Positions 54,698 to 57,999 of a stretch of 64,000 nucleotides of DNA are shown here, one piece after another (positions within the stretch are counted from its first letter, which is position 1; each line of letters opens with the position of its first letter). The notes under the pieces were generated by a model. That model was not told the origin of the DNA. It was given only the letters and a program-made list of their open reading frames with translations, and did no database searches. Made by a program: the position numbers and the translations under genes. Source of the stretch: Flavobacterium sp. MDT1-60 (GTDB lineage: Bacteria > Bacteroidota > Bacteroidia > Flavobacteriales > Flavobacteriaceae); contig NZ_CP062159.1 of the NCBI RefSeq assembly GCF_014844035.1, forward strand, positions 4,092,001-4,156,000, in the 5' to 3' direction.

Positions 54698-54762
54698 CAA
54701 AATTAGACCTCAGTGCTGAAACGGATGGAGACACATTACCACTATAAAAGAAACATTTTACC
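54698..54762 (-). promoter_or_regulatory. Operator-promoter A (hydrolase/quinone-reductase unit)
   Basis: On the minus strand: GGTAAAATGTTTC (54762-54750), then GGTAATGTGTCTC (54740-54728), 22 nt apart start to start. Exactly 22 nt after the second comes the -7 box TAATTTTG (54705-54698). The ATG at 54664 follows 33 nt later. The same layout recurs at promoters B and C. An AraC-family activator is the likely ligand. Confidence 0.8.
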
Positions 54763-54851
54763 GTTATCCTTTTTATTGATTAACTAATAATTCTCTAAAT
54801 TTACTATGTCTTACAAACTCTCAGTCTATTCCCGAAGGCGAAGTATTTGCA

Positions 54852-55733
54852 TTAATTTTGAAGCATCTTATTGTATTGTAAACGGTATTCTTTCGGAGTC
54901 AATCCTGCTTGTTTTTTAAAAAATTTTGAGAAGTAATTTGGATACTCAAATCCCAGAGTATAAGCAATCTCGGTGGTATTAAGATCGTTTCTGTTTTCAA
55001 GCATTTCTTTTGCTTTTGCAATTACAAACTCGTGAATGTTTTCTATGGCTGTTTTCTTGGTGATTTGTTTTATAATATCACCCAAGTAATTTGGAGTTAA
55101 TCCCATCTTATCGCCAAAATACTGAACTGCAGGAATCTGATTGACCGGATGATTGTAATACCCCATCAGCAGTTGCTGAAATTCTGATATGATTGGACTG
55201 TATTGTTTAATATTTGTAGAAAACTGTCTTTTGTAAAATGATTCTACCAAAGAAACCATTACGTGAACATAAGAAATCAGTACGGTGAAATTGTCTTTTT
55301 TCTGTTCATAATATTTCAACATCAAACTAAAAATCATTCTTATTTCCTTTTCTTCATCCTCAATTAATAATAATGGTTCGTGAAGTCCGTAATTGTAATA
55401 GTTCTTAAAAAGAAAACGGTTTTCTTCGATCATTTTTTTAGAAAACTGTAAATAAATCCCATTAAAATTAGGCTCCATATCCCATCCACCTCCGATTTCC
55501 GGGCTGTTAAAGAAAGCGGCATTAATAGGCTTAGTGTTTTGTGGATCATAGCCGGGAACAGATTTATCAATGAAATTACTCTTGATCGAAATTCGATAAA
55601 AATCAATCGCCACAGGTTCTGATTTCAGGCGTATTGCCGGAACATCATAATATCCTATATCAATATTATTATCCAATGGTTTTGGTAAACCAATGTATTC
55701 GTTAAACGATTCTATGTCTTTGAATAATTTCAT
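54852..55733 (-). CDS. AraC family transcriptional regulator 1
   Basis: 293 residues. The N-terminal part (1-190) is an AraC-type sensor with PLDNNIDIGYYDVPAIRLKS near 19-38 and FYRISIKSNFIDKS. The C-terminal two-HTH domain has VQYFGDKMGLTPNYLGDIIK near 206-225 and LNTTEIAYTLGFEYPNYFSK, then KKQAGLTPKEYR. It starts 15 bp after the SDR gene, so it is co-expressed with it from promoter B. It shares roughly half its residues with the regulator ending at 58042, so they are recent paralogues. A candidate binder of the 22/22 operators. Confidence 0.93.
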   Translation of the reverse strand: MKLFKDIESFNEYIGLPKPLDNNIDIGYYDVPAIRLKSEPVAIDFYRISIKSNFIDKSVPGYDPQNTKPINAAFFNSPEIGGGWDMEPNFNGIYLQFSKKMIEENRFLFKNYYNYGLHEPLLLIEDEEKEIRMIFSLMLKYYEQKKDNFTVLISYVHVMVSLVESFYKRQFSTNIKQYSPIISEFQQLLMGYYNHPVNQIPAVQYFGDKMGLTPNYLGDIIKQITKKTAIENIHEFVIAKAKEMLENRNDLNTTEIAYTLGFEYPNYFSKFFKKQAGLTPKEYRLQYNKMLQN

Positions 55734-55748
55734 TGAAAAAATTAGATA

Positions 55749-56591
55749 TTATTTATCAATTGCCAATGAAGAAGATAATTCTCGGTAGGCATCGGCTTGG
55801 TCTTGTAATTCTTGGATTTTTCTTTCTGTTTCTGCAATCGCATCTGCGCCAGCAAACCAACGTTTTGGAGGTGTTGCCTCGCTTGCTACTGTAAGTAAAC
55901 CCGCTGCTAATTTTGCAGGATCTCCACCCTGAGTTCCACTCATTGCTTGCCAACCCGGACGAAGCATTGCAATACGTTCTGCATAATCTTCAATATGCAA
56001 TTCATTCCAAATGGTTGAAGATGGTTCTAATAAATTGGTTCTGAAAAATCCCGGATTTACGATAGTAGTATTGATCCCAAATTGTGAAACTTCCAACTGT
56101 AGCGATTCCATCCAGCCTTCTAATGCAAATTTAGATCCTGCATAAGCCGTACAAAGCTCATAACCCACTAATCCCGCTGTTGATGAAACGGTAATAATGT
56201 GTCCTGATTTATTGCTTCTCATAATTGGCAGAACGGCTCTTGTCACATTCATAGGTCCAAATACATTAACAGCAAATTGACGCTCCATCTGAGCCTGGCT
56301 TAATTCTTCAAAATAGCCTGCATAAAAGCTGCCTGCGTTGTTAACTAACACATCTACAGTTCCAAATTTTTCTATGGCGGCATCTAAGGCTGTATTTATT
56401 TCTTCAGCATTAGTAACATCCATTTGTACCACCAATAAGTTATCGGTAGACTCTCCAAGTGCCTTTACTACCTTGTCTGCATTTCTACCAGTGGCGATTA
56501 CTTTGTTGCCTGCAGCAAGTGCTGCTTTAGTAATTTCCAATCCTATTCCACTGCTTGCCCCGGTTATTAACCAAACTTTATTATTTGTCAT
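55749..56591 (-). CDS. Short-chain dehydrogenase/reductase
   Basis: 280 residues. NAD(P)-binding TGASSGIGLE near 10-19, NNAGS near 87-91, the catalytic Ser-Tyr-Lys in TVSSTAGLVGYELCTAYAGS near 142-161 with YAGSK, and NPGFFRTNLLEP near 184-195. The arginine after the first strand in ATGRNADKV suggests NADP(H). Classical SDRs of this kind reduce carbonyl compounds; the substrate is unknown. It forms an operon with AraC regulator 1. Confidence 0.93.
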   Translation of the reverse strand: MTNNKVWLITGASSGIGLEITKAALAAGNKVIATGRNADKVVKALGESTDNLLVVQMDVTNAEEINTALDAAIEKFGTVDVLVNNAGSFYAGYFEELSQAQMERQFAVNVFGPMNVTRAVLPIMRSNKSGHIITVSSTAGLVGYELCTAYAGSKFALEGWMESLQLEVSQFGINTTIVNPGFFRTNLLEPSSTIWNELHIEDYAERIAMLRPGWQAMSGTQGGDPAKLAAGLLTVASEATPPKRWFAGADAIAETERKIQELQDQADAYRELSSSLAIDK

Positions 56592-56622
56592 TTTTTAATG
56601 TTTTAATGTTATAATTACAACA

Positions 56623-56687
56623 CAAAGGTATAGAGAGGCAATAATTTTGATGGAAACGGATTACTAGTAAAAAAGAAACATTTTACT
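56623..56687 (-). promoter_or_regulatory. Operator-promoter B (SDR-AraC unit)
   Basis: On the minus strand: AGTAAAATGTTTC (56687-56675) and AGTAATCCGTTTC (56665-56653), 22 nt apart, then exactly 22 nt to the -7 box TACCTTTG (56630-56623). The ATG at 56591 is 32 nt further on. The left 16 nt (GTAAAATGTTTCTTTT) are identical to operator A. Confidence 0.8.
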
Positions 56688-56692
56688 GGTAC

Positions 56693-56724
56693 AAAAAAAC
56701 GCTCCCGGAAAGAGAGCGTTTTTG
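56693..56724 (-). terminator. Terminator of the aldo/keto reductase gene
   Basis: AAACGCTCTctttccGGGAGCGTTTTTTT on the minus strand, 43 nt beyond the stop at 56767 and immediately upstream of operator B. Confidence 0.88.
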
Positions 56725-56766
56725 TAACATAATTTAATCTTTAGTTATACCAAATGAATTACGGTA

Positions 56767-57909
56767 TTATTGGCAAAAAGTCATTTGCATTTCATTCATT
56801 CTTCCTCCATATACTTTTAATTTAGCAAACTCGGTTTCCAATTCCTGAAATTCCGCAGCAGATAACTGAACATCATAAGCACCTAAATTTTCTTTAAGAT
56901 GAGGAATATTTCTAGTTCCGGTAATAGAAACGATGAAAGGTTTTTTCGCCAAAAGCCAGGCAAGTGCAATCTGAGAAGCTGTTGCATTTTTGTTGGATGC
57001 AAATCGGTTGAGAAGATTCACAATTGGCATATTGGCTGCCAAACCTTCAGGAGTGAAGCGGTCAAATGCAGAACGTAAATCTAATTTACTATCAAAAGGA
57101 GTCTGTGCATTAAGTTTTCCCGTCAGATACCCCATTCCAAGTGGTCCCCACGGCACAAAACCAATTCCTAATTCTTCACATAAATCTAAAACGCCATTTT
57201 TCTCCACGCTTCGTTCCATAAATGAATATTCTGTCTGGATAGCTGAAACAGGTTGTACAGAATGTGCTTTACGAATGGTTGCAGTATTTGCTTCCGACAA
57301 ACCGAAATGCAATACTTTACCTGCTGCAATCAAGTCTTTTACCGCACCTGCAACATCTTCAATTGGTACATTAGGGTCAACACGGTGTTGATATAAAAGG
57401 TCGATTCTATCTGTTTTGAGTCTGGTTAATGATTCTTCAACCACTTTCTTAATATGTTCGGGTCTGCTGTTTAATGTGATATTTGGAGCACCAATTTCAA
57501 AACCAAATTTAGTAGCAATAGATATTTTATCTCTAAATGGAGCCAATGCTTCTCCTACTAATTTCTCGTTTGTATAAGGTCCGTAAACTTCAGCAGTATC
57601 AAAAAATGTAACGCCGCTTTCATACGCTTTGCGAATGGTTTTAATACCCTCTTCAATTTTTGCCGGCGCACCATAATTGGCACTTATACTCATACAGCCT
57701 GCTCCCAATGCAGAAACTTTTAACTTTCCAAGATTTCTTGTAGTCATTTTATTTTCTCTATCCTTGTTTTGTTCACTAATTTCAATATTGCCGGATGAAG
57801 CAGTGATCAAACTTGGTGTAAGCATTAAGCCTGCTCCGGCAATTGCTGTTTGCTGAAAGAATTTTCGTCTCGAATTTTCGTCCTTGTTACTGGTATTATC
57901 GTGTTTCAT
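56767..57909 (-). CDS. Tat-targeted aldo/keto reductase
   Basis: 380 residues. A twin-arginine signal SRRKFFQ (13-19) is followed by the hydrophobic [15 protein letters not shown]. The AKR barrel starts at about 60 ([15 protein letters not shown]). Catalytic residues: Asp104 and Tyr109 in FFDTAEVYG, Lys in ATKFGFE near 132-138, His in YQHRVD near 170-175. The C-terminal [18 protein letters not shown] binds NADP(H). Tat export of a folded, cofactor-bearing enzyme would place it in the periplasm. An internal ATG (57747) could make a cytosolic form. Promoter C with the 22/22 operator lies upstream. Confidence 0.9.
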
Positions 57910-57934
57910 TTTAAGATGTTTTAAAATTGCTTAG

Positions 57935-57999
57935 CAAATTTACCATTGTAAAAAACAATCGACAGAAACAGATTACCTATAAAAAAGATACAAATTACT
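57935..57999 (-). promoter_or_regulatory. Operator-promoter C (aldo/keto reductase)
   Basis: On the minus strand: AGTAATTTGTATC (57999-57987) and GGTAATCTGTTTC (57977-57965), 22 nt apart, then exactly 22 nt to the -7 box TAAATTTG (57942-57935). The ATG at 57909 is 26 nt downstream. Confidence 0.8.

What the first reader, a model, noticed from the sequence alone, without database searches (positions are those of the whole stretch)
54698..57999. One operator-promoter geometry (22/22) shared by three transcription units
Three minus-strand promoters (A: 54762-54698, B: 56687-56623, C: 57999-57935) each carry two direct 13-mers of the form RGTAAnnTGTTTC. The start-to-start distance is exactly 22 nt, and exactly 22 nt separate the second copy from a TAnnTTTG box. 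Spacing is constant in all three while the flanking bases differ, so it is a functional constraint, not duplication. Direct repeats two helical turns apart, ending next to the -33 region, are the classical site of AraC-type activators, and two paralogous AraC genes lie among these units. Units A-C encode the hydrolase, three quinone reductases, ABM protein, SDR, AraC regulator 1 and the Tat aldo/keto reductase. This defines a candidate local regulon.
Basis: partly seen in the sequence, partly recalled or inferred. Interest (0 to 1): 0.8.

Follow-up and report, generated by a model that had tools for sequence, protein, structure and literature searches.

The report
AraC operator-promoter module in Bacteroidota
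Three neighbouring gene groups share one switch-like DNA element of fixed geometry, very probably read by the AraC-type proteins encoded beside it; the same element follows the same regulator gene in many related bacteria, mostly in front of reductase or hydrolase genes.

Summary
In detail: three 65-bp minus-strand elements (two 13-mers, 22 nt start to start, then 22 nt to TAnnTTTG) lie where stated. They are the only such elements in the 5.56-Mb genome at up to 3 mismatches. Of 50 loci from named genomes with an AraC at least 58% identical to the window's AraC2, 48 carry the element with 22/22 spacing; they span four orders of Bacteroidota. All 16 genus genomes with a site are among the 26 of 398 that hold the AraC gene. 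In 24 of 27 more distant AraC loci (31-50% identity) the -7 box keeps its distance from the first half-site; in 23 of the 27 that half-site overlaps the AraC stop codon or lies in its last codons. Best explanation: a class II AraC-type activator operator (half-sites about -69 to -57 and -47 to -35) driving quinone-reductase-like, aldo/keto reductase, SDR and hydrolase genes. Binding, activation and inducer are inferred. Correction: sites A and C each sit behind a paralogous AraC gene, so module duplication is probably part of their origin. Known kind, new member.

The parts
57935..57999 (-). Operator-promoter C: half-site 1 57999-57987, T-rich spacer 57986-57978, half-site 2 57977-57965, N22, -7 box TAAATTTG 57942-57935
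56623..56687 (-). Operator-promoter B: half-site 1 56687-56675, spacer 56674-56666, half-site 2 56665-56653 (CCGTTTC variant), N22, -7 box TACCTTTG 56630-56623
54698..54762 (-). Operator-promoter A: half-site 1 54762-54750, spacer 54749-54741, half-site 2 54740-54728, N22, -7 box TAATTTTG 54705-54698
58042..58908 (-). AraC2, two-domain AraC-type regulator; its stop lies about 42 bp before site C
54852..55733 (-). AraC1, paralogue (59% identical to AraC2), second gene behind site B; its stop lies about 90 bp before site A
56767..57909 (-). Aldo/keto reductase with a twin-arginine-like leader (RRKFF; motif recalled, not tested), first gene behind site C
   Evidence: Pfam Aldo_ket_red 2.6e-70; nearest solved relatives include perakine reductase and IolS
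55749..56591 (-). SDR1, first gene behind site B, followed by AraC1
   Evidence: Pfam adh_short 4e-55
53651..54664 (-). Alpha/beta hydrolase, first gene behind site A (ATG at 54664; the searches used 54667 as the end, one extra codon)
   Evidence: Pfam Hydrolase_4 5.6e-8; 39-42% identical to the first gene behind 13 of 17 stop-codon operators of distant AraC genes
52913..53596 (-). FLAV1, Flavodoxin_2 reductase; start looks like a signal peptide (by eye)
   Evidence: Pfam Flavodoxin_2 6.9e-26
52271..52876 (-). FLAV2, MdaB-like (NADPH:quinone reductase family) protein
   Evidence: PDB 4s24/3rpe/2amj 'Modulator of drug activity B', E 7e-40 to 3e-34; Pfam Flavodoxin_2 1.6e-27
51634..52236 (-). 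FLAV3, similar reductase
   Evidence: NCBIfam KefF model hit, below its cut-off, as for FLAV1 and FLAV2; resembles FLAV2 by eye
51176..51616 (-). ABM-domain protein, last gene of unit A
   Evidence: Pfam ABM 3.1e-10; PDB 3kkf 3.9e-24
58007..58029 (-). Intrinsic-terminator-like hairpin plus T-run between AraC2 and site C
56693..56718 (-). Intrinsic-terminator-like hairpin plus T-run between the AKR gene and site B

Best explanation
Each element is an operator plus core promoter for a ligand-responsive AraC-type activator. A dimer of AraC2 (or AraC1, or both, since they share the recognition helix) binds two 13-mer half-sites in the same orientation, two helical turns apart and joined by a T-tract. 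The promoter-proximal half-site ends at about -35, where sigma region 4 sits. The dimer thereby substitutes for or reinforces the weak -33 element and switches on a sigma-A(Bfr) promoter with a TAnnTTTG -7 box and a short leader. The targets are small-molecule reductases and hydrolases: an MdaB-like quinone reductase and two similar Flavodoxin_2-type proteins, aldo/keto reductase, SDR, alpha/beta hydrolase and ABM protein. AraC1 is the second gene behind site B, so the circuit can feed forward on itself. The likely role is induced reduction or detoxification of quinones, aldehydes or related aromatic compounds. Shown: sequence, geometry, conservation, association with this AraC subfamily, family of the target genes, predicted AraC fold. 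Inferred: binding, activation rather than repression, operon extents, inducer class.
For: Only three sites genome-wide, all in this cluster. Genus: 20 sites in 16 of 398 genomes, reversed control 0; all 16 are among the 26 of 398 with an AraC2 homologue at E<=1e-60, chance 4e-22 if genomes were independent. Nine of the other ten have a site of at least 28.6 bits within 1.5 kb of the gene; the last keeps 22/22 with drifted letters (by eye). Named relatives fetched by protein only: 48 of 50 loci with AraC >=58% identical carry dimer plus TAnnTTTG; L118 has 23/22, L104 none. The dimer matrix fixes the 22-nt spacing, so spacing was also tested freely: in the 42 loci with the site within 120 nt of the AraC stop, the best second copy among offsets 14-34 is at 22 in 42 of 42, and TAnnTTTG, which is not in the matrix, is at offset 57 in 42 of 42, 23 of 23 after removing look-alikes. 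At >=12 bits the matrix gives 84 sites (71 distinct, training sites included) over 96 partly overlapping loci and 0 in reversed sequence. Mean pairwise identity: operator 0.81, N22 0.35, box 0.84. Other AraC-like genes: 1 of 49. The first gene behind a site is related to the window's Flavodoxin_2-type, AKR, SDR or hydrolase proteins in 83 of 105 sites, repeats counted. F. johnsoniae data place the -7 box at -12 to -5 with a weak -33 motif (PMC6847099, passages). Two-domain AraC fold.
Against: No binding, transcript or mutant data. Relatives were fetched partly through the peptide FEYPNYF, which 73 of the 80 contain, so the shared recognition helix is by selection. A TTG starts at -32 in 13 of 42 sites, in 6 of them as TTTG from -33, so a -33-like box is not always absent. 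No site lies upstream of AraC2 itself in the window, so autoregulation of AraC2 is not supported. In 22 of 105 sites the first gene is none of the four target kinds or could not be called.
Confidence: 0.85

Rival explanations
1. The element is a repressor operator: AraC protein bound next to -35 blocks RNA polymerase until a ligand releases it.
For: The position next to -35 would also allow steric blocking; 13 of 42 sites have a TTG at -32.
Against: Direct repeats abutting -35 with a two-domain AraC protein match class II activators (recalled knowledge of AraC, RhaS and similar proteins); 36 of 42 sites lack a TTTG at -33, which suggests that the promoter needs help.
Confidence: 0.1
2. The three promoters are alike only because a promoter segment was recently duplicated with the genes; there is no shared regulator.
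For: A and C both follow paralogous AraC genes.
Against: N22 is 23-36% identical between A, B and C while the operator is 74-80%; the same element is conserved across four orders of Bacteroidota; site B follows the AKR gene, not an AraC gene.
Confidence: 0.03
3. The site is bound by some other regulator that is merely linked to the AraC genes.
For: No binding data exist.
Against: In 398 genomes the 16 with a site (up to 1 mismatch) all hold the AraC homologue; the site sits within 120 nt of the AraC stop in 42 of 50 near relatives although the gene behind differs; in distant clades it overlaps the AraC stop codon.
Confidence: 0.05

Closest known systems
E. coli AraC at araBAD (araI1-I2), class II AraC activators (site arrangement recalled)
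   Same: Two direct half-sites about two helical turns apart, the proximal one abutting the -35 region; N-terminal cupin-like dimerisation domain plus double-HTH DNA-binding domain
   Different: Different half-site letters with a T-tract between them; a Bacteroidota TAnnTTTG promoter; the operator lies behind the 3' end of the regulator gene and faces the next gene in the same direction; the ligand is unknown
Bacteroidota sigma-A(Bfr) promoter, TAnnTTTG -7 box (PMC6847099, PMC9723704; passages seen)
   Same: Perfect -7 box in all three sites and in 42 of 42 relatives; leader length near the published values
   Different: Constant upstream operator; TTTG at -33 in only 6 of 42
E. coli mdaB-ygiN quinone redox pair (recalled)
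   Same: Unit A combines an MdaB-like reductase with an ABM-domain protein
   Different: Two further Flavodoxin_2-type proteins, hydrolase and AKR nearby; other regulator; whether the ABM protein is a quinol monooxygenase is not known (its weak NCBIfam hit is LsrG-like, below cut-off)

Membership tests
AraC/XylS family transcription factor (AraC1, AraC2) | C-terminal double helix-turn-helix domain | tested here: met
AraC/XylS family transcription factor (AraC1, AraC2) | N-terminal sensing/dimerisation domain | tested here: met
Class II AraC activator site | Tandem direct half-sites about 21-22 bp apart | tested here: met
   22 bp in the 3 window sites, 48 of 50 loci by matrix, 42 of 42 by the free test
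Class II AraC activator site | Proximal half-site abuts or overlaps the -35 region of the regulated promoter | tested here: met
   Half-site 2 ends 22 nt before the -7 box, i.e. about -35 with the box at -12 to -5; the transcript start itself is not mapped here
Class II AraC activator site | Bound by the AraC protein and activated by it | not testable with these tools
   needs footprint and reporter
Bacteroidota sigma-A(Bfr) promoter | TAnnTTTG -7 element | tested here: met
   3 of 3 window sites, 42 of 42 relatives
Bacteroidota sigma-A(Bfr) promoter | -33 TTTG element | tested here: inconclusive
   TTG at -32 in 13 of 42, 6 of them TTTG from -33; published data call the element weak
MdaB NADPH:quinone reductase (FLAV2) | Sequence relation to solved MdaB proteins | tested here: met
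   E 7e-40 to 3e-34, nearly full length; enzyme activity not tested

The most novel reading that the evidence does not exclude
A whole AraC subfamily of Bacteroidota carries its own operator as the 3' end of its gene. In the window's clade it lies 7-56 bp behind the stop in 42 of 50 loci. In more distant relatives it overlaps the stop codon (AG-TAA-TTTGTATC type, 17 loci) or the last codons (AGTAAAAAGTATC-TAA type, 6 loci). The distance from the first half-site to the -7 box stays at 57 bp, while half-site spacing is 22 or 21. Regulator, operator and promoter would thus form one portable cassette, inherited or moved as a block and placed in front of unrelated small-molecule enzymes.
Probability: 0.5. 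Interest if true: 0.65.

Novelty: new member of a known kind. Interest (0 to 1): 0.5.

Why it matters
To my knowledge few AraC operators are defined in Bacteroidota, whose promoters lack a strong -33 element. This is a precise, widely conserved and easily testable operator-promoter pair with candidate regulators and targets. It predicts regulons by sequence alone, offers a possible inducible promoter for Flavobacterium and Chryseobacterium genetics once the ligand is known, and lets one test how a class II activator works with sigma-A(Bfr). The stop-codon overlap in distant clades, if functional, shows a regulator gene and its operator evolving as one piece of DNA.

Tried and rejected
Thiol switch of the regulator: AraC1 and AraC2 contain no cysteine, so a cysteine-based electrophile sensor is unlikely for these two; orthologues were not counted (at least one, L072, has a cysteine). 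Sites elsewhere in the genome: none at up to 3 mismatches with the box. Site upstream of AraC2: none at up to 6 mismatches in the window. Other AraC-like genes of this genome and of relatives: 1 of 49 has a half-site of at least 8/9 and none has 9/9. Operator pattern of the stop-codon type in 296 genomes of the order: 0 hits, control 0, so that clade is rare in the sample and I could not enlarge it. Phylum sample of 395 genomes with a dimer pattern that includes the T-tract, up to 2 mismatches: own genome plus G475 only, control 0. AraC2 on plasmids at E<=1e-40: none. Terminator before the operator as a general rule: a perfect-stem hairpin plus T-run in 24 of 48 intervals; none by this simple test in the other 24, site A included. 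Literature: nine searches gave no paper recognisable from its listing as describing this operator; only passages of two papers were seen.

Rows dropped before counts: I left out, of the 80 loci, L104, L108, L109, L118, L125, L145 and L151 by name and L077, L079, L081, L083 by score; their sites or lack of sites are told in the text. My first matrix was wrong because pattern loci are not turned to the pattern's strand; it was replaced. In one search a clumsy expression for the second copy matched 28 of 42 at offset 22 and none elsewhere; one search repeats the test with a plain score (42 of 42 at 22). In one search ties between half-sites sometimes picked the second copy, so its box count is too low and is not used.
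Full report
What is there. On the minus strand, three 65-bp elements sit at 57999-57935 (C), 56687-56623 (B) and 54762-54698 (A). Each holds two 13-mers of form RGTAANNNGTNTC with starts 22 nt apart and then exactly 22 nt to a TAnnTTTG box. C precedes the aldo/keto reductase gene, B the SDR-AraC1 pair, A the hydrolase, three Flavodoxin_2-type reductases and the ABM protein. 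The first start codons lie 25, 31 and 33 nt after the boxes of C, B and A. Terminator-like hairpins separate the upstream gene from C and B; none was found before A.

Chance. In the whole 5.56-Mb genome the dimer occurs exactly three times, all here; at two mismatches there are two more places and one in the reversed control. With N22 and the box, up to 3 mismatches adds nothing and the reversed control gives 0. In 398 genomes of the genus, up to one mismatch, there are 20 sites in 16 genomes and 0 in the control. A dimer pattern with the T-tract, up to two mismatches, in 395 genomes spread over the phylum found the own genome and one other, G475, control 0; the G475 site again lies behind an AraC1-like gene, 61% identical.

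Who reads it. I searched the same genus draw (398 genomes, same handles) for AraC2 itself: 26 have a homologue at E<=1e-60, and all 16 site-bearing genomes are among them (4e-22 if genomes were independent). Nine of the other ten have a site of at least 28.6 bits within 1.5 kb of the gene. The tenth, G273, and one of two AraC copies in G312 keep two AGTA-type half-sites at 22/22 before a TAATTTTG box, although the GT and TTTC letters have drifted (read by eye). Geometry thus seems to outlast letters.

Named relatives, fetched by protein only, gave the best 80 of 159 confirmed stretches. Fifty encode an AraC at least 58% identical to AraC2. Of these, 42 have the element within 120 nt of the AraC stop (7-56 nt) and 6 have it farther on (L077, L079, L081, L083, L108, L109); all 48 have the dimer and TAnnTTTG at offset 57. 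L118 has one extra T in the spacer, 23/22. L104 has none. Genera include Flavobacterium, Paenimyroides, Chryseobacterium, Epilithonimonas, Pedobacter, Sphingobacterium, Dyadobacter, Emticicia and Chitinophaga, i.e. at least Flavobacteriales, Sphingobacteriales, Cytophagales and Chitinophagales. The matrix covers the 35-bp dimer at fixed spacing. Two free checks: the best second copy among offsets 14-34 is at 22 in 42 of 42, and the box, not part of the matrix, is at offset 57 in 42 of 42, 23 of 23 after removing look-alikes at 75%. Operator identity averages 0.81, the N22 0.35, the box 0.84.

Specificity. A half-site of at least 8/9 lies within -30..+120 of the AraC stop in 70 of 80 relatives and in 1 of 49 other AraC-like genes from this genome and its relatives. 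Caution: the locus search used the peptide FEYPNYF, part of the second HTH, and 73 of 80 contain it; none of the 49 controls does.

Distant clades. Thirty loci have AraC below 58%; L125, L145 and L151 show no clear site. In the other 27 the last four letters of the box position (offset 61) read TTTG in 20 and TTT[GA] in 24. In 17 of these the first half-site starts 5 nt before the end of the stop codon, so that TAA (once TGA) is part of the operator; in 6 it starts 16 nt before, inside the last codons. In 20 of 27 the second half-site is at +21 and in 1 at +22. Many of these loci are metagenome bins of one accession series and are not independent. Behind 13 of the 17 stop-codon operators the first gene is a relative (39-42%) of the window's hydrolase, and behind one more at 35%, so regulator and target class correspond across clades.

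Mechanism. In F. johnsoniae the -7 box spans -12 to -5 and transcripts start 4-5 nt after it, with a weak -33 motif (PMC6847099, passages); the F. psychrophilum map also gives TAnnTTTG for sigma-A (PMC9723704, passages). That places the half-sites at about -69 to -57 and -47 to -35, the class II arrangement known from AraC-type activators (recalled). A TTG starts at -32 in 13 of 42 sites, 6 of them TTTG from -33. The AraC2 model (mean pLDDT 85, pTM 0.57) has an N-terminal domain like RhaR and AraC and a C-terminal AraC-type DNA-binding domain. AraC1 and AraC2 are 59% identical and share FEYPNYFSKFFKKQ, and so may compete for or share the sites. AraC1 is the second gene behind B, a possible positive loop. 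Activation is inferred, not shown.

Function. FLAV2 is close to solved MdaB proteins. With SDR, AKR, hydrolase and ABM protein the set looks like induced handling of quinones, aldehydes or related aromatic compounds; no inducer can be named. Neither AraC has a cysteine, which argues against a thiol switch in them.

Verdict. It is a new operator-regulator pair of a known kind, conserved over four orders of Bacteroidota. No paper describing it was recognised in nine searches of an open-licence library (listed under Tried and rejected); most subscription journals are not covered.

Noticed in passing
L122, L126-L139, L141, L142 at the AraC stop codon; L144, L146-L150 just before it: The operator half-site contains the AraC stop codon in 17 loci (NGTRATTTGTATC, or AGTAAAATGTATC in L141 and L142); in 6 further loci it is encoded by the last codons.
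   Followed up: partly
L023, L024, L025, L166, L168, L169 behind the AraC stop: By eye, some other AraC families also have a promoter-like stretch with a TTTG box behind their stop codon but with other letters; AraC genes followed by their target may be a common layout here.
   Followed up: no
window 59221-61276: A plus-strand SDR, a small protein and a third AraC gene lie next to the cluster. L074 carries, behind its FLAV genes, an SDR (31% to SDR1) and relatives of the small protein (55%) and of AraC3 (81%).
   Followed up: no
L116 and L117, 2001-2065: The N22 of this site is an inverted repeat (GCCCAAGCC..GGCTTGGGC) directly before the -7 box. L116 and L117 come from bins labelled as different phyla but share site and coordinates, probably misbinned; G475 (L153) has the same site.
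   Followed up: partly
L062 9991 (+) and 11321 (-): Two operators 1.3 kb apart that face each other: one before a gene for a lumazine-binding-like protein (Pfam PF12893), not behind an AraC gene, the other before a Flavodoxin_2-type reductase gene behind AraC.
   Followed up: partly
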